From Anaerolineales bacterium UBA6663 (GTDB lineage Bacteria; Chloroflexota; Anaerolineae; Anaerolineales; UBA6663): a DNA stretch of 5,066 bases. Made by a program: the position numbers and the translations under genes. The notes under the pieces are model-generated. The model did not search any database. It was not told the DNA's origin and saw only the letters and a list, made by a program, of their open reading frames with translations. Of the stretch, positions 34-5,066 are shown piece after piece (the stretch's first letter is position 1; the number at the start of each line of letters is the position of its first letter). The stretch spans positions 1 to 5,066 of the forward strand of contig DKKP01000249.1 in assembly GCA_002455335.1 (NCBI GenBank), read 5' to 3'.

Positions 34-1182
34 TCAGGACGCCGCGCCCGGACTGGGAGCCATGACCTGCAGGAGCAGAAAGACGGCGACGCCCAACACG
101 ATCAGCAAGATGATGGCCAAGAGCACAAGCACCACATACGTGCGGATCGGCAGCGGGCGCGCCTCTTTGGGCTGCGGACCATAGATCGCCAGCAGCGCCC
201 GCGCGAACTCGAGCATGTTGGGGAAGCGATCGGTCAGCGCCGTGGCGCGCTCGACGATCTTGACCACGCCCGCGCCCTCGAGCTCGGGCCGTTCGACTGG
301 CAGGACGGCCCGGTTCTGGGTCACCGACCGTCGGACACGCTCATCGCGCAACAGCTTCGGCTCGAAACCGGGATGGCCCGCGAGCATCTCATACGTGACA
401 AGGCCCAGCGAATGGACATCCGACGCCTGCGTCACCTGCACGCCCGTTCGCGCCACGAGCACCTCTGGTGCCGTGTACGCGGGTTCGCATCGATCGAGCG
501 CCTGCCCCAGGATCTGTGCATCGGTGGGGGCGACCAGCCAACCGAGATCGAGCACGGCTGCCCGCCAGTGGTTCTGTTTATCGCGGTCGACAAGGATGAC
601 ATCCGGGGTCAGGCTGAGGTGGAGCAGCCCGCGGCCGACCCAGGGGCGCAATTGCTCGGCGACGTGCGTGATGACCCAGGCGACCTCGTAATGCCAGAGC
701 TGCGGATTCTCCTTGAGGAGATCCGCCAGGATCACGCCCTCGAACGGCTCGAAGACCATGTAGACCTTGGTCTCGCCGCGAAACGTGATCTCGCCATAGG
801 GACGTTTGGAGGGCGCCGGGTACGGCGGCAACAGGATCGGCAGGCTGTGCCGCGGCTTGCGCATGAAGCCCTTGAGCCACTTCGGCGTCCGGTTTGCGGC
901 GCGCGCCACAGGCTCGAGCGCCTGCGCCTCACGCTTCAGACGCTCATCGCAATCGGGAGCCGTGTGCGCGACCTTGACCCAGACCGGCACGTCGTTGCGC
1001 TCGGCGGCGTAGATCGCGGCGTGTCGATAAACCGTGATCAGTTTGGTGATCTTGAGATCGCCCAGAAAATCTCCGAACTTGAAGATCGGGTATCCGGCCT
1101 CGGCCGGGCAATCTCGCTCAGGGCACCAGAGATGCCCATCGACTGTCTGACGTTCGCAGCGTTCGCAAAAACGAGTGAGCAT
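34..1182 (-). CDS. Membrane-anchored Ser/Thr protein kinase-like protein, probable pseudokinase, with N-terminal zinc-ribbon-like motif
   Basis: The protein has 382 residues. An N-terminal four-cysteine motif (C6, C9, C20, C25; CxxC and CPERDC) looks like a zinc ribbon. A protein-kinase fold follows at about residues 40-335. Recognisable landmarks are the ATP-anchoring Lys in VKVA (K70), a likely helix-C Glu (E85), a hinge-like VFEPFEG (143-149), DLG in place of DFG (212-214), APE (238-240) and SDVHSLG (254-260). The catalytic-loop HRDLKPEN reads HLSLTPDV (188-195), so the catalytic Asp, the Lys and the metal-binding Asn are all changed, and no glycine-rich loop is visible. This points to a pseudokinase or a very divergent kinase. 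Residues 348-373 form one strongly hydrophobic helix near the C-terminus, so the kinase fold should face the cytoplasm as a tail-anchored protein. The ATG has only a weak GAGG 11 nt upstream. It is transcribed divergently from the two-component operon. Its substrate or partner is unknown. Confidence 0.85.
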   Translation of the reverse strand: MLTRFCERCERQTVDGHLWCPERDCPAEAGYPIFKFGDFLGDLKITKLITVYRHAAIYAAERNDVPVWVKVAHTAPDCDERLKREAQALEPVARAANRTPKWLKGFMRKPRHSLPILLPPYPAPSKRPYGEITFRGETKVYMVFEPFEGVILADLLKENPQLWHYEVAWVITHVAEQLRPWVGRGLLHLSLTPDVILVDRDKQNHWRAAVLDLGWLVAPTDAQILGQALDRCEPAYTAPEVLVARTGVQVTQASDVHSLGLVTYEMLAGHPGFEPKLLRDERVRRSVTQNRAVLPVERPELEGAGVVKIVERATALTDRFPNMLEFARALLAIYGPQPKEARPLPIRTYVVLVLLAIILLIVLGVAVFLLLQVMAPSPGAAS

Positions 1183-1396: not shown

Positions 1397-2416
1397 ATGT
1401 CGACCTCAGGCCAGTCTGAAGATCCTGTCGTTCCACAGGCCGCGCTCTCCCACCGCGCTGCCCTTCTGGACGCCTGCCCGATGGCCGTCGCGCTCTACGA
1501 CCCCGAGGGCAACCTGTTGTATGCCAACCGCAGCGCTTCGGCCGAGGCGGCAGGCGGCGAGAGCGCCCATCGCCGCACGCTCATCCGGCGGGTCGCGACC
1601 ACGGGCACACCGATCCGATTCACTGAACGCCATGGCGATTGCTGGGAAGAGGTCTGGATCAAACCCGTGATCGCGACGGATGGCGACCCGGCGGGCATCG
1701 CCACCTATACCCGAGAGATCTCGGCCCAGATCCGGGCCGAAGAGCGGCTCAAACTGCTCTCGCTCCAGCTCCCCACCCTCCAGGAAGATGAACGCCGCCG
1801 GATCGCGCAGGATCTTCACGACGACATCGGTCAGGGCATGACGGCCCTGATCCTCAACCTCAAGGCCGTGCATGGGGCGTTGACCTCAGGGCGCCGCGAC
1901 GTCGAGGATCAAGTGCTCGACACCATCGCGGCCGTCGAAGAACTGATGCGCCACACGCGACGCATCTTCTACGACCTCAGGCCGCCGAACCTCACCGATG
2001 TACCGCTTGCCAAGGTACTCGAAGGCCTCTGTGCTTCATTTGCGCTGACCTCGGGGCTGCGCGTGGTCTTCAGCAGTCAGGACCCCATGCCCGATCTGCC
2101 CGATGTGCCGGCCACGGCTTTCTACCGGCTTGTGCAAGAGGGCCTGAACAACGTCGTCAAACACGGTCGGGCGGGCTCGGCCTGGATCAACCTGGAGCAT
2201 GTCGATGGCGAGGTCAACATCTCGCTCGAGGATGACGGACAGGGTTTTGATCCCGCCGAGAACCCACGCGAAGGCATGGGGCTCCAGGGCATCCGCGAGC
2301 GCTTCAAGCTGCTCAACGGAAACTTCGATCTCGAATCGGCGCCCGGGAGAGGCACCCGGCTCTATGCTTCCTTGCCGGCCAGTCAGCCGGGACCTGAAGA
2401 ACCGCGGAGGATGTGA
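1397..2416 (+). CDS. Cytoplasmic PAS-domain sensor histidine kinase, NarL/DegS (HisKA_3) type
   Basis: This 339-residue sensor kinase autophosphorylates on His and passes the phosphate to a partner regulator, almost certainly the adjacent one. Residues about 18-110 form a PAS-like sensor (ACPMAVALYDPEGNLLYANR, then a segment ending ATYTREIS). A short linker leads to a HisKA_3 dimerisation domain, with the phospho-acceptor H141 in the motif RRIAQDLHDDIGQG (134-147) and the family's DLRPPNL signature (193-199). The HATPase_c domain has an N box (EGLNNVVKHG, 248-257), a G1 box (DDGQGF, 279-284), a G2 box (GMGLQGI, 293-299) and GRGT (317-320). All catalytic motifs look intact. There is no signal peptide or membrane segment, so it should sense a cytoplasmic cue or protein partner. 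I see no heme- or flavin-binding signature; C27 and C82 are the only PAS-region cysteines. The stop codon is 1 nt before the regulator's ATG. The signal is unknown; the downstream glycerol-kinase homologue is a candidate partner. Confidence 0.95.
   Translation: MSTSGQSEDPVVPQAALSHRAALLDACPMAVALYDPEGNLLYANRSASAEAAGGESAHRRTLIRRVATTGTPIRFTERHGDCWEEVWIKPVIATDGDPAGIATYTREISAQIRAEERLKLLSLQLPTLQEDERRRIAQDLHDDIGQGMTALILNLKAVHGALTSGRRDVEDQVLDTIAAVEELMRHTRRIFYDLRPPNLTDVPLAKVLEGLCASFALTSGLRVVFSSQDPMPDLPDVPATAFYRLVQEGLNNVVKHGRAGSAWINLEHVDGEVNISLEDDGQGFDPAENPREGMGLQGIRERFKLLNGNFDLESAPGRGTRLYASLPASQPGPEEPRRM
2406..2410 (+). promoter_or_regulatory. Ribosome binding site that decides the response regulator start
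   Basis: GGAGG lies inside the end of the sensor kinase gene, 7 nt before the ATG at 2418. The frame is open further upstream (to 2199), but the receiver domain begins exactly at MIRVIVAEDH, so 2418 is the true start. Confidence 0.85.
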
Positions 2417-2417
2417 C

Positions 2418-3095
2418 ATGATACGCGTGATCGTCGCAGAGGATCATCACCTCGTCCGGCAGGGGATCGTCAAGTTGCTCGAAGGCGCCGGCGACATCTC
2501 GGTCGTGGGCGAGGCCGACAACGGCGCTCAGGCGGTCGAGTTGGTCGATGTGCTTCAACCCGATGTGATGGTGCTCGATCTGACGATGCCGCACGTCGAT
2601 GGGCTCGAGGCGCTACGCCAGATCGTGGTCAAGCGGCCGCGGCCTCAGATCGTCATCCTCTCGATGCATGCCGACCCCAACATCGTGCGCCAATCGCTGC
2701 GTGCCGGCGCGATCGGCTACGTCATCAAACAATCGGTTGCCGAAGAGTTGCTGGCCGCTGTGCGCGCGGCCCGCAACGGCAGCCTGTTCTTGAGCTCGGG
2801 CGTGATCGCCCAAGATTTTTTCACCGAACGGCCGCAGAACTTACTCGATCGGTTGTCACCGCGCGAGCGCGAGGTGGTCAAGCGCCTTGTCGAAGGCCAG
2901 TCGGCGCGCGACATCGCCGAGGCGCTGCGTACCAGCATCAAGACCGTCGAAAAGCAGCGCCGCGACGCGATGCGCAAGCTCGATGTCGACAACCTTGCCA
3001 GCCTGGTGCGGGTCAGCCTGGAGTTGGGTCTGGTCGTCGGCGCGCCGACACGCTCGCGCGCCGGTGCATCCGGCCCGGCGGAGGGGCTTTCGTGA
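2418..3095 (+). CDS. Two-component response regulator, NarL/FixJ family (receiver plus LuxR-type HTH)
   Basis: This 225-residue protein is a DNA-binding response regulator. The receiver domain (about 1-120) has the acidic pair E8/D9, the phospho-acceptor D54 in MVLDLTMP, the switch residue S82 in LSMHAD, and the conserved K104 in YVIKQS. The output domain (about 143-205) is a LuxR-type helix-turn-helix starting LSPREREVVKRLVEG, with recognition-helix region TSIKTVEKQRRDAMRKL. The usual VETHR is VEKQR here, a small departure that could affect specificity. A short Ala/Gly-rich tail follows. All phosphorylation residues are present, so it should be a functional phosphate-dependent transcription factor. 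It starts 1 nt after the sensor kinase stop and overlaps the next gene by 4 nt, so the three proteins are probably made together. NarL-family proteins bind inverted half-sites; the palindromes at 4662-4697 are the best candidates in this window. Confidence 0.95.
   Translation: MIRVIVAEDHHLVRQGIVKLLEGAGDISVVGEADNGAQAVELVDVLQPDVMVLDLTMPHVDGLEALRQIVVKRPRPQIVILSMHADPNIVRQSLRAGAIGYVIKQSVAEELLAAVRAARNGSLFLSSGVIAQDFFTERPQNLLDRLSPREREVVKRLVEGQSARDIAEALRTSIKTVEKQRRDAMRKLDVDNLASLVRVSLELGLVVGAPTRSRAGASGPAEGLS
3080..3084 (+). promoter_or_regulatory. Ribosome binding site supporting the GTG start of the glycerol kinase homologue
   Basis: GGAGG lies 7 nt before GTG at 3092, within the last codons of the response regulator gene. 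The family's N-terminal beta strand (YILSI) begins four codons after this GTG. The next ATG, at codon 18, would delete the whole first nucleotide-binding strand and loop. GTG is therefore the start, in a GTGA overlap with the upstream stop. Confidence 0.85.
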
Positions 3096-4591
3096 GTTCC
3101 TACATCCTCAGTATCCATCAGCGCACCGGCGGCACACGGGCGATGCTTCTCGACCGCCGGGCGAACCTGATCGCCTCGGCCTTTGGCGAAATCACGCAGT
3201 TCTTTCCGCAGCCGGGCTGGGTCGAGCATGACGCCCACGAGATCTGGGAGGTCAGTCGTCGGGTGGTGGCCGAGGCGCTGCAAAACGGCCGCATCTCGCC
3301 CGAACAGATCGAGGCCATCGGCGTCACCAACCAGCGCGACACCACTGTGTTCTGGGATCGGCGCACCGGTCAGCCCGTGGGGCGGGCCCTCGCCTGGCAG
3401 GATCAACGCACGCTGCCGCTGTGCGAGCAGTTGATCGCCCAGGACAAGGCCGGGATCGAGTCGCGCACCGGTATGGTGATCGTGCCGGATGTCACGGCCG
3501 CCAAGATCCGGTGGCTGCTCGACAACGACCGGGCCATCCAGAAGGGCGTTGCCCGCGGCGAGCTGCTCTGTGGCACGATCGACAGCTGGCTGATCTGGAA
3601 GCTCTCGGGCGGTGCGGCGCATGTCACGGATCACTCGAACGCCGCGCTGACGCTGCTGCAAAACGCCGAATCGCTCACCTACGACGACGGGCTGCTCAAC
3701 ACGCTCAGCATCCCGCGCGACATCCTGCCCGAGCTCCATCGCTCGAGCGAGGTCTACGCCACCACAGACCCGGGCGCCTTCTTTGGCGTGCGCGTGCCGA
3801 TCGCGGGCGCGGCCGGCGACCAGCAGATCGCCGTACTTGGGCAGGCGTGTCTCGCGCCAGGGACCGCGAAGAACACCTATAGCAGCGGCTCGTTCATCAA
3901 CCTCAACACGGGCGGCCGTTACCTGCCGCCGGCGAATGGGCTGTTCGCTCCGGTGCTCTGGACCATCGGTGAGACCGTGGTCTATGGGCTCGAGGGCAAG
4001 GCTGACGTCGCCGGAGACGCCCTGCACTGGCTCCGCGACGGGCTTGGGATCATCCGCGAACTGAGCGAGGTCGAGGGTCTGGCCAGCCAGGTCAGCGACA
4101 CACAGGGCGTGTATTTCGTGCCGCCGTTGGGTGGGCCCGATGTCGTGCAGGCCGGGGCCTATGCCCGCGGCGCCATCATGGGGATCACCCGCGGGATCAC
4201 GCGCCACCATATCGCGCGCGCCGCGCTCGAGGCGATGGCATATCAGACCCGCGACTTCTTCGAGGAGATCAAGCACCGCGCGCCGGATCTCACCCCCGAG
4301 GTATTGCGCGCCGATGGCCGGGTCGCCAAGAGCGACTTCCTGCTGCAGTTCCAGGCCGATATCCTCGGCATCCCCGTTGAACGGCCAGTGATGACCAACA
4401 CGGCCGCCGTCGGCGCCGCGTTCTTGGCCGGATTGGCCGTCGGATTTTGGAGTTCGATCGAGGAAGTCGCAGGCTGTTGGCGCCGTGAGACCCGTTTTGA
4501 GCCTCGCCTGTCCTATGATCGCCGCGAAGAGTGGTACGACGGCTGGAGGCGTGCCATGGCGCAGGTCAAGCGCCCCGGTGCCAGCCACTGA
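3092..4591 (+). CDS. Glycerol kinase homologue (FGGY family) with a degenerate ATP site; possible pseudoenzyme or sensor
   Basis: This 499-residue protein has the full length of GlpK (about 500) and aligns to it end to end, e.g. PGWVEHD (41-47), IGVTNQRDTT (76-85), VTDHSNAALT (178-187), GDQQ (242-245), AYQTRDFFEE (383-392), LAGLAVGFW (445-453). True GlpK makes sn-glycerol-3-phosphate from glycerol and ATP. The pocket and catalytic base are mostly kept: R82, W102, D243, F268; the usual Glu is D83 and the usual Tyr is D133. The nucleotide site is damaged. The N-terminal DQGTT loop is HQRTG (9-13), the usual FTGLGAPYWD-type loop is LGGPDVVQAG (346-355), and DGGAVANN is DGRVAKSD (408-415). H9 replaces the Asp that positions metal and phosphate. 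There are no frameshifts or internal stops, so it appears to be maintained. The 4-nt overlap with the response regulator suggests a role in that signalling system rather than, or besides, catalysis. Weak residual kinase activity, or another substrate, is not excluded. Confidence 0.92.
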   Translation: MSSYILSIHQRTGGTRAMLLDRRANLIASAFGEITQFFPQPGWVEHDAHEIWEVSRRVVAEALQNGRISPEQIEAIGVTNQRDTTVFWDRRTGQPVGRALAWQDQRTLPLCEQLIAQDKAGIESRTGMVIVPDVTAAKIRWLLDNDRAIQKGVARGELLCGTIDSWLIWKLSGGAAHVTDHSNAALTLLQNAESLTYDDGLLNTLSIPRDILPELHRSSEVYATTDPGAFFGVRVPIAGAAGDQQIAVLGQACLAPGTAKNTYSSGSFINLNTGGRYLPPANGLFAPVLWTIGETVVYGLEGKADVAGDALHWLRDGLGIIRELSEVEGLASQVSDTQGVYFVPPLGGPDVVQAGAYARGAIMGITRGITRHHIARAALEAMAYQTRDFFEEIKHRAPDLTPEVLRADGRVAKSDFLLQFQADILGIPVERPVMTNTAAVGAAFLAGLAVGFWSSIEEVAGCWRRETRFEPRLSYDRREEWYDGWRRAMAQVKRPGASH

Positions 4592-4661: not shown

Positions 4662-4676
4662 TACTCTGATGGAGTA
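4662..4676. promoter_or_regulatory. Candidate operator 1 (TACTC-N5-GAGTA)
   Basis: This is a perfect 5-bp inverted repeat around a 5-nt centre. The arm TACTC fits the first five positions (TACYY) of the heptamer recognised by NarL. The two arms are one base closer than in the classical 7-2-7 NarL arrangement. Its centre (4669) is 21 bp from that of operator 2, placing both on the same DNA face. The probable ligand is the LuxR-type regulator encoded at 2418-3095; this is an inference. Confidence 0.5.
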
Positions 4677-4682
4677 TTCATC

Positions 4683-4697
4683 TGCTCCATTGGAGCA
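4683..4697. promoter_or_regulatory. Candidate operator 2 (TGCTCC-ATT-GGAGCA)
   Basis: This is a perfect 6-bp inverted repeat with a 3-nt centre. It matches operator 1 at 10 of 15 positions, giving a shared pattern TRCTCY-N2-TGGAGYA. It has the same length and lies in tandem with operator 1. It could also form an RNA hairpin, but no T tract follows, so a terminator is unlikely. A weak promoter-like pair (TTCATC at 4677-4682 and CATAGT at 4700-4705, spacer 17) would place this palindrome in the spacer. Confidence 0.5.
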
Positions 4698-4982
4698 TCC
4701 ATAGTGCGCCATCCGTATCGCCTGGTTGGGTGGTCCGCCTGATTCCCAGGGCACCCAATCTGGTGATAATGGATGACGTCCTTTAAGGTTGCGAAAGTCC
4801 ATCGGAATCCACAGGCGGTTTGGCGGCAGCAGACATCGAGCGCCCGACGTGGCTAGCGGCATTTGACGACGGCTCGGAACGGCGGAACGCCGGGCTCATG
4901 CTGCGCCCCGCCCTGGAACCTGGGAGTGGAAGAAAGGAGCAATACCAGCAGAAGGCGTTGCATCGAAGTGAGAGTGCTGCAG

Positions 4983-5034: not shown

Positions 5035-5066
5035 ATGTTTCTGGCTGAATTCTTTGGCACGATGAC
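5035..5066 (+). CDS. glpF: Start of a MIP-family channel, probable glycerol uptake facilitator (partial, runs off the window)
   Basis: Only ten codons are visible, reading MFLAEFFGTM. This matches the conserved start of the first membrane helix of aquaporins and glycerol facilitators (typically xxAEFxGTxxL, with the Glu conserved). These channels sit in the inner membrane; the GlpF branch lets glycerol diffuse into the cell, where GlpK traps it by phosphorylation. A glycerol-kinase homologue just upstream favours GlpF over a water-specific AqpZ, but ten residues cannot separate the two, so the symbol is tentative. The strong ribosome binding site supports the start. It lies 443 bp downstream of the three-gene signalling operon, behind two palindromes that could be operators. 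Confidence 0.6.
   Translation, partial: MFLAEFFGTM

What the first reader, a model, noticed from the sequence alone, without database searches (positions are those of the whole stretch)
3092..4591. Full-length glycerol kinase homologue with a lost ATP site, embedded in a two-component operon
The protein aligns with GlpK over its whole length, yet three separate nucleotide-site signatures are altered: DQGTT to HQRTG (residues 9-13), the FTGLGAPYWD-type loop to LGGPDVVQAG (346-355), and DGG to DGR (408-410). The reading frame is intact and the gene overlaps the response regulator by 4 nt, so it looks maintained for another job. Catalytically dead sugar-kinase relatives are known as sensors (yeast Gal3 is a galactokinase homologue acting as an inducer). 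A pseudo-GlpK signalling partner of a histidine kinase would be a novel arrangement as far as I know.
Basis: partly seen in the sequence, partly recalled or inferred. Interest (0 to 1): 0.85.

Follow-up and report, generated by a model that had tools for sequence, protein, structure and literature searches.

The report
Dead glycerol kinase as glycerol sensor
In some Chloroflexota bacteria a relative of the enzyme glycerol kinase whose ATP-binding residues are replaced is encoded together with a two-component switch and beside the glycerol-uptake genes, and it is predicted to be the part that senses glycerol (or a similar compound) and would tell the switch to turn those genes on.

Summary
Window 3092-4591 encodes an intact, full-length glycerol-kinase (GlpK) homologue with a broken ATP site, overlapping a NarL-type response regulator (RR) by 4 nt, downstream of a cytosolic histidine kinase (HK). 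In its clade (50 rows, 48 distinct) positions contacting glycerol in E. coli GlpK are nearly invariant while ATP-site positions vary like random columns. HK-RR-pseudoGlpK is intact in 7 of 7 genomes with upstream sequence; a glpF-like channel and true glpK lie nearby in 7 of 8 carriers. A tandem 15-bp palindromic box lies upstream of glpF; trained on three loci, it is recovered in held-out ones. In sister proteins the GlpK-like domain is fused to a LuxR helix-turn-helix up to 68% identical to this RR's (best paralogue found: 48%), and the two fusion loci read carry the same box. Best reading: a catalytically dead kinase serving as polyol receptor of a three-component glycerol switch. No biochemistry has been done.

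The parts
3092..4591 (+). pseudo-GlpK, 499 aa: glycerol-kinase fold with replaced ATP-site residues; predicted sensor
1397..2416 (+). histidine kinase, 339 aa, PAS_4-HisKA_3-HATPase_c, no hydrophobic membrane-like segment
2418..3095 (+). NarL-type response regulator, 225 aa, receiver + LuxR/GerE HTH; its stop overlaps the pseudo-GlpK start by 4 nt
4662..4676 (.). box 1 (TACTCTGATGGAGTA), predicted RR site
4683..4697 (.). box 2 (TGCTCCATTGGAGCA, perfect palindrome), starting 21 bp after box 1
4724..4747 (+). promoter-proximal element shared by eye with the other loci (TTGGG...CCTGATT)
   Evidence: read by eye, no statistic
4765..4770 (+). -10-like hexamer GATAAT of the predicted glpF promoter, 103 nt from the start of box 1
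5035..5066 (+). start of a MIP-channel (glpF-like) gene, cut by the contig end; it appears to continue in contig C156 (L174) through an exact 23-bp overlap, followed there by dhaK, dhaL and a true glpK

Best explanation
The gene at 3092-4591 encodes a glycerol-kinase-fold protein whose ATP-site residues are replaced while its polyol-pocket residues are nearly invariant across its clade, and it is predicted to be the ligand-binding sensor of the histidine kinase/response regulator pair encoded just upstream, which would switch on the glpF-dhaK-dhaL-glpK genes downstream. Proposed working: glycerol (or dihydroxyacetone) enters through the GlpF-like channel and binds in the cleft of the pseudo-kinase, which cannot phosphorylate it; ligand-driven domain closure is passed by direct contact to the cytosolic PAS-histidine kinase, or to the response regulator itself; phosphorylated regulator dimers bind two or three 15-bp palindromes on one face of the helix and activate a promoter with a good -10 but no clear -35. 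In sister proteins the same input domain is fused straight to the same type of HTH, which would cut out the kinase step. Shown: the sequences, synteny, clade, selection, motif and HTH kinship. Inferred: loss of catalysis, ligand, protein contact, RR binding to the boxes, direction of regulation.
For: (a) Synteny: HK-RR-pseudoGlpK co-directional in 7 of 7 genomes with upstream sequence (G000, G005, G021, G040, G662, G1246, G1268; G001 is cut by its contig end), with a 4-nt RR/pseudoGlpK overlap in 3 of 7. (b) Glycerol context: a MIP channel and a true glpK on the same contig in G001, G005, G021, G040, G1246 and G1268, and in G000 through the 23-bp contig overlap; dhaK and dhaL between them in G000, G021, G040, G1246 and G1268; the G662 contig ends first. 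(c) Residues, 50 rows: R83 48/48, W103 48/48, Q246 50/50, F270 50/50, D245 46/50; ATP site D10 to H/N/L 47/47, G12 to R/K 47/47, G266 to S/T 49/50, ten residue types at G411 (none Gly), eleven at Q314 (Gln in 10). Leaving out the three columns used for selection, mean entropy is 0.08 for five glycerol columns (random sets as low: 0.011) and 1.18 for eight ATP columns (random sets as high: 0.026); in 59 canonical rows 0.07 and 0.11. Four rows lost both D10 and D245. (d) Rosetta fusions: GlpK-like + LuxR HTH proteins. In G1233 and G1228 the best hit to this RR's HTH is the GlpK-fused HTH (61% and 57%, 67.6 and 68.4 bits), against 48% and 47.6 bits for the best paralogue in G000; up to 68% in others. 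(e) Box: a matrix from three loci finds held-out G1268 and G1246, and weakly G001, as tandems; of 9 single boxes scoring 17 or more in 1.24 Mb, 8 lie in these loci, four of them held out (L179, L106, L170, L171), and the reversed control has 0. First box to -10 is about 103 nt in four loci and 123-125 nt in three. (f) Purifying selection; predicted fold intact, TM 0.93 to GlpK 3g25, while the former nucleotide loop 346-359 has pLDDT under 50.
Against: No binding, activity or expression data. D245 is kept in 46 of 50 rows, so residual catalysis is not excluded. Two glycerol contacts changed (E84D, Y135D), so the ligand may not be glycerol. The HK has its own PAS domain and could sense something else. 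A relative with an intact ATP loop and a broken substrate site also sits with a two-component pair (L172), and the 70 HTH-fused rows keep D10 (70/70) with E84 and Y135 replaced (70/70 each), so the sister groups may sense something else, perhaps with nucleotide. The second box is weak in G001 and G1246 and not found in G021. The matrix was built by eye from three of the loci and the score cut of 17 was chosen after seeing the scores; at 13 or more only 10 of 26 boxes lie in these loci, against 6 in the reversed control (two of the other 16 are in loci that had been fetched with the box pattern itself). HTH kinship does not prove that the RR binds the boxes.
Confidence: 0.72

Rival explanations
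1. The pseudo-GlpK is a non-catalytic partner subunit or regulator of the true GlpK (mixed oligomers) that happens to be co-transcribed with the two-component pair.
For: A true glpK is encoded on the same contig in six carriers and by contig overlap in a seventh; solved GlpKs include oligomers (an 'inactive tetramer' is named in titles listed).
Against: The gene overlaps or lies within 70 nt of the RR in 7 of 7 genomes and never directly abuts glpK; in sister proteins the domain is fused to an HTH, and no further GlpK is encoded in the 17-18 kb read around the two fusion genes.
Confidence: 0.1
2. It is an active kinase with changed chemistry or another phosphoryl donor or substrate, and the two-component pair regulates it like any catabolic gene.
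For: D245 (46 of 50), Q246 and R83 are kept; the wider lineage includes members with intact ATP loops beside an amidohydrolase, which look like enzymes.
Against: D10, G12 and G411 are replaced in every row with letters there, G266 in 49 of 50 and T14 in 45 of 47, and the ATP columns vary like random ones; four rows also lost D245; the gene lies with the regulator genes, upstream of the predicted glpF promoter.
Confidence: 0.1
3. The signal is sensed by the HK PAS domain, and the pseudo-GlpK only tunes or inhibits the system (anti-activator, catabolite-repression link).
For: The HK has a PAS_4 domain, and DhaM-HPr-EI type proteins lie nearby in G021, G040 and G1246.
Against: The PAS domain of the window HK lacks about 16 residues that the seven aligned relatives have, whereas the polyol pocket of the pseudo-GlpK is nearly invariant.
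Confidence: 0.15
4. It is a decaying duplicate of glpK.
For: ATP motifs are broken.
Against: No stops inside the matches in any of the eight carriers, and low pN/pS, similar to the RR's.
Confidence: 0.02

Closest known systems
GlpK glycerol kinase (FGGY family)
   Same: Whole-length fold (TM 0.93), FGGY_N and FGGY_C, R83/W103/D245/Q246/F270
   Different: ATP loop, adenine-site glycine and other nucleotide positions replaced; E84D and Y135D; fails the GlpK equivalog cut-off; lies with a two-component pair
DhaQ, 'DhaKLM operon coactivator' (name from the TIGR02362 description; mechanism recalled: an inactive DhaK paralogue that binds dihydroxyacetone and activates DhaS)
   Same: A dead paralogue of a catabolic C3 kinase, encoded beside the true kinase operon, thought to report the substrate to a regulator
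   Different: Unrelated fold (DhaK and not FGGY); its partner is a TetR-type regulator (recalled) and not a two-component system
UhpABC (recalled) and other accessory sensors of two-component systems; the start of the abstract of PMC5703999 (search listing only) says that the transporter DctA interacts with the kinase DcuS
   Same: HK and RR score against the UhpB and UhpA models (115.3 and 105.3 bits, both far below those models' cut-offs of 408 and 258), with a third protein derived from a metabolic protein
   Different: The third protein is a soluble kinase homologue, not a membrane transporter
Yeast Gal3 (recalled)
   Same: Sugar-kinase homologue used as inducer sensor
   Different: GHMP kinase, needs ATP binding (recalled), acts on Gal80

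Membership tests
[quoted passage not shown]
   210.5 and 93.6 bits against cut-offs 28.8 and 27
GlpK glycerol kinase (enzyme) | GlpK equivalog model TIGR01311 cut-off | tested here: not met
   527.8 against 590.35; two true GlpKs of such operons 713.3 and 747.2
GlpK glycerol kinase (enzyme) | D10-x-G12-T-T14 phosphate loop and G411 of the adenine site (roles recalled) | tested here: not met
   H9, R11, G13, R410
GlpK glycerol kinase (enzyme) | Glycerol signature R83, E84, Y135, D245, F270 (listed in PMC3245297, passages) | tested here: not met
   3 of 5 identical (R83, D245, F270); E84 is D and Y135 is D
GlpK glycerol kinase (enzyme) | ATP-dependent glycerol phosphorylation | not testable with these tools
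   needs purified protein
Two-component system | HisKA_3 + HATPase_c kinase and receiver + HTH regulator with conserved phosphoacceptor regions | tested here: met
   domains above Pfam cut-offs; phosphoacceptors read by eye from alignments of 8 loci
Three-component system with accessory sensor (UhpABC-like) | accessory protein stably linked to the HK-RR pair | tested here: met
   7 of 7 genomes with upstream sequence
Three-component system with accessory sensor (UhpABC-like) | accessory protein binds ligand and controls HK activity | not testable with these tools
   needs biochemistry
DhaQ-like pseudo-kinase coactivators | homology to DhaK | tested here: not met
   FGGY fold; no DhaK model among its listed hits

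The most novel reading that the evidence does not exclude
A glycerol kinase was converted into a dedicated signal-input module and used in two architectures, as the third component of a histidine kinase/response regulator system and, fused directly to that regulator's own type of DNA-binding domain, as a one-component switch; in the window's clade the ATP site decayed while the polyol pocket was frozen into a receptor, and both architectures appear to use the same DNA box.
Probability: 0.62. Interest if true: 0.85.

Novelty: new variant of a known kind. Interest (0 to 1): 0.78.

Why it matters
It would be a clear natural series of an enzyme turning into a receptor (active GlpK lineage, then regulators with a changed substrate site, then regulators with a dead ATP site), with both a separate-protein and a fused form. 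It would explain how some Chloroflexota control glycerol uptake, predict an operator and regulon, show that a set of database entries called 'glycerol kinase' are regulators, and offer a polyol-sensing module for biosensors.

Tried and rejected
Decay/pseudogene: rejected by low pN/pS (most pairs are saturated at synonymous sites). Rfam elements in the window: none at gathering scores. HTH fusions in viral contigs: none confirmed. HTH fusions in the class of G450: 391 sampled genomes, only one non-fused relative at the cut-off; in the order of G450, 21 of 67 genomes have relatives, with open frames of 498-522 aa, all too short for a fusion. Strict single palindrome in 8 carrier genomes: too weak alone (0-3 per genome, reversed control 0-8), though 2 of 3 hits in G000 and the only hit in G040 are the glpF boxes. 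No box upstream of the window HK: the matrix finds none of 13 or more in the window outside 4662-4697. A strict two-box pattern gave three hits elsewhere that look like chance. Group-2 GlpKs of Eubacterium, Caldiserica and Lachnospiraceae lie beside an amidohydrolase, and no HK-RR homologue was found in the stretches read, so the wider lineage is not all regulatory. In the tree (quick method, SH-aLRT only) the labels 'pseudo' and 'fusedHTH' need 3 changes each; mislabelled or truncated rows account for some of these: P0041 and P0105 (no letters at D10), P0161 (536 aa, HTH present but under my length cut), P0114 (520 aa, no HTH listed). The branch that joins the pseudo clade to the L172-like group has support 90, not starred. 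In the entropy test columns 10, 84 and 135 had been used to define the rows; it was repeated without them. The gene picker hid some genes behind shadow ORFs (in the window, L106 and L179); (tblastn) corrected this and is the source for gene content. Literature: seven searches aimed at such a system and three at comparators in open PMC text; none of the listed papers (4-20 per search, of up to 972 hits) is about a pseudo-GlpK regulator or GlpK-LuxR fusion by title and start of abstract. One paper was opened, by term passages only (PMC3245297). Subscription papers are not held. The context of the other R83/E84-less proteins (P0058, P0066 and others) was not obtained.
Full report
What is there. 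The window is the whole of contig C117 of an unnamed 4.79-Mb genome, 86% complete; its nearest named relatives are Chloroflexi/Anaerolineales MAGs. Reading along the plus strand: a histidine kinase (1397-2416), a NarL-type response regulator (2418-3095), a 499-aa GlpK homologue (3092-4591), a 443-nt gap and the first codons of a MIP-channel gene. Contig C156 of the same genome shares an exact 23-bp end overlap with the window and carries on with that channel gene, dhaK, dhaL and a canonical glpK. The relative G001 shows pseudoGlpK, channel gene and glpK on one contig, so the likely order in the window's organism is HK-RR-pseudoGlpK-glpF-dhaK-dhaL-glpK. The join rests on 23 bp and synteny, not on reads.

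The kinase is broken in a patterned way. Against solved GlpKs the alignment runs end to end. D10, G12, T14, G266, T267, Q314, G411 and N415 (E. coli numbering) are replaced; R83, W103, D245, Q246 and F270 are kept; E84 and Y135 are both Asp. PMC3245297 (term passages only) names R83, E84, Y135 and D245 as hydrogen-bonding glycerol and F270 as packing on it. The roles of D10, G12-T14, G266-T267, Q314, G411 and N415 in nucleotide binding, and of W103 and Q246 at the substrate, are recalled. In 50 rows of the clade (48 distinct over the compared part; selected in part on positions 10, 84 and 135; 2-3 lack N-terminal letters; the later finds L179 and L180 are not among them) the other five glycerol columns have mean entropy 0.08, lower than 98.9% of random column sets, whereas eight ATP columns have 1.18, higher than 97.4% of random sets; in 59 canonical rows both are near zero. 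Four rows have lost both D10 and D245. The predicted fold is intact (pLDDT 87.9; TM 0.93 to 3g25), and the former nucleotide loop 346-359 is the only internal stretch under pLDDT 50. dN/dS against the nearest relative is 0.062; most other pairs are saturated at synonymous sites but have pN/pS of 0.31 or less.

It is a conserved trio. In the order, 7 of 400 sampled genomes had a match at E 1e-150 or better: six of the clade (72% identity or more) and G746 at 48%; in family f11, 4 of 152, two of them new. So it is rare. HK, RR and pseudo-GlpK are adjacent and co-directional in 7 of 7 carriers with upstream sequence. Near the trio, G021, G040, G1246 and G1268 each carry glpF-dhaK-dhaL-glpK on one strand (in G021 in opposite orientation and 6.6-10.5 kb away; in G1268 glpK is cut by the contig end), G005 carries glpF-glpK and G001 glpF-glpK; a GlpA-like dehydrogenase is also present in G005, G021, G040 and G1246. 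The HK has its H, N and G boxes and no hydrophobic segment (highest 19-residue mean 1.49), and the RR keeps its phosphoacceptor region, so this looks like a cytosolic system whose obvious candidate for input is the third protein.

Rosetta stone. A sister group consists of GlpK-like proteins with a C-terminal LuxR HTH. Both groups lie in a 98-starred clade of 55 rows that leaves out canonical GlpK and the amidohydrolase-linked group-2 GlpKs (quick tree). That HTH is not just any LuxR domain. Searching G000, G746, G1228 and G1233 with the HTH of the window RR, the best hit in G746 is the RR beside its GlpK-like gene (64%, 94 bits), and the best hits in G1233 and G1228 are the GlpK-fused HTHs (61% and 57%, about 68 bits); the best paralogue in G000 reaches 48% and 47.6 bits and all others 36 bits or less. 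The stretch KTVEKQRRDAMRKL is shared with some fusions and nearly so with the others shown. Evolution has joined the same input domain either to a receiver-HTH protein with a kinase, or straight to the HTH.

A shared box. Upstream of glpF, G000, G005 and G040 have two 15-bp palindromes of the type TRCTCYnnnRGAGYA (some imperfect) with a 21-bp start-to-start register. A matrix from these six boxes, applied to 1.24 Mb of non-redundant loci (166 loci, mostly GlpK neighbourhoods), gives as its five best tandem hits the three training loci and the held-out G1268 and G1246 pseudoGlpK loci; the sixth is the GlpK-HTH fusion locus L170 (a single strong box) and the seventh is G001. For single boxes, 8 of 9 hits of 17 bits or more lie in such loci: window (two), L107 (inside a doubtful 110-aa ORF), L108, L179, L106 (upstream of glpF, about 11 kb from its trio), L170 and L171 (just after the fusion genes, ahead of a membrane alpha/beta hydrolase and of a PF00144 serine-hydrolase gene); one is inside an unrelated ORF, and the reversed control gives 0. 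At 13 bits or more it is 10 of 26, with 6 in the control. L172 has a weaker box (11.1 bits) in the matching place. The start of the first box lies about 103 nt (G000, G001, G005, G021) or 123-125 nt (G040, G1246, G1268) from an AATAAT-like -10, the difference being about one more 21-bp register. Binding by the RR is inferred.

Results against the reading. The 70 HTH-fused rows (69 distinct) keep D10 (70/70) and replace E84 (70/70) and Y135 (70/70), so the sisters may sense something else, perhaps still with nucleotide. Of the groups compared, only the window's clade has the dead-ATP/frozen-pocket pattern. G662 gives no downstream view. The HK has its own PAS domain.

Mechanism and novelty. The best-supported account is a three-component switch in which a dead glycerol kinase serves as receptor. 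It works like DhaQ (a dead kinase paralogue as coactivator; name from the TIGR02362 description, details recalled) and like UhpC in UhpABC (a metabolic protein as third component; recalled), but it is a member of neither. None of the papers listed in the literature searches (calls named in Tried and rejected) is about such a system. I rate it a new variant of a known kind: pseudo-enzyme sensors are known, but a pseudo-glycerol kinase wired to a two-component system, with a fused one-component sister, was not found.

Noticed in passing
window 34-1182 (-): Protein-kinase-like ORF with an N-terminal Cys cluster and a C-terminal hydrophobic segment; by eye the HRD region reads HLSLTPD and DFG reads DLG, so it too looks like a pseudokinase.
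   Followed up: no
window 1397-2416: The PAS domain of the window HK lacks about 16 residues that all seven aligned relatives have.
   Followed up: no
L170 8015-9748 (-), L171 7824-9548 (+): GlpK-like + LuxR HTH fusions; all 70 fused rows examined replace E84 (60 of 70 with Cys) and Y135 (Asn) but keep D10.
   Followed up: partly
L172 6359-11698: HK-RR-GlpK-like with intact ATP loop and broken substrate site, next to a membrane alpha/beta hydrolase with the same top Pfam hits as the one beside fusion L170.
   Followed up: partly
L013, L014, L015, L016: A second GlpK lineage (Y135 to Asn, ATP loop mostly kept) directly after an amidohydrolase gene (Amidohydro_3 by Pfam in L014, the others by look) in Eubacterium, Caldiserica and Lachnospiraceae records; an unassigned kinase-amidohydrolase pair.
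   Followed up: no
P0058, P0064, P0066, P0069, P0071, P0072 and others: A hand-picked set of 16 GlpK-like proteins (L172 included) with R83 and E84 both lost and F270 to Ser; the context of the 15 others is unknown.
   Followed up: no
L108 818-3334 (-), L106 6192-8780 (-): DhaM fused to HPr and a full PTS enzyme I, 838 and about 860 aa; domains were checked in L108, and L106 is its 51% homologue.
   Followed up: no
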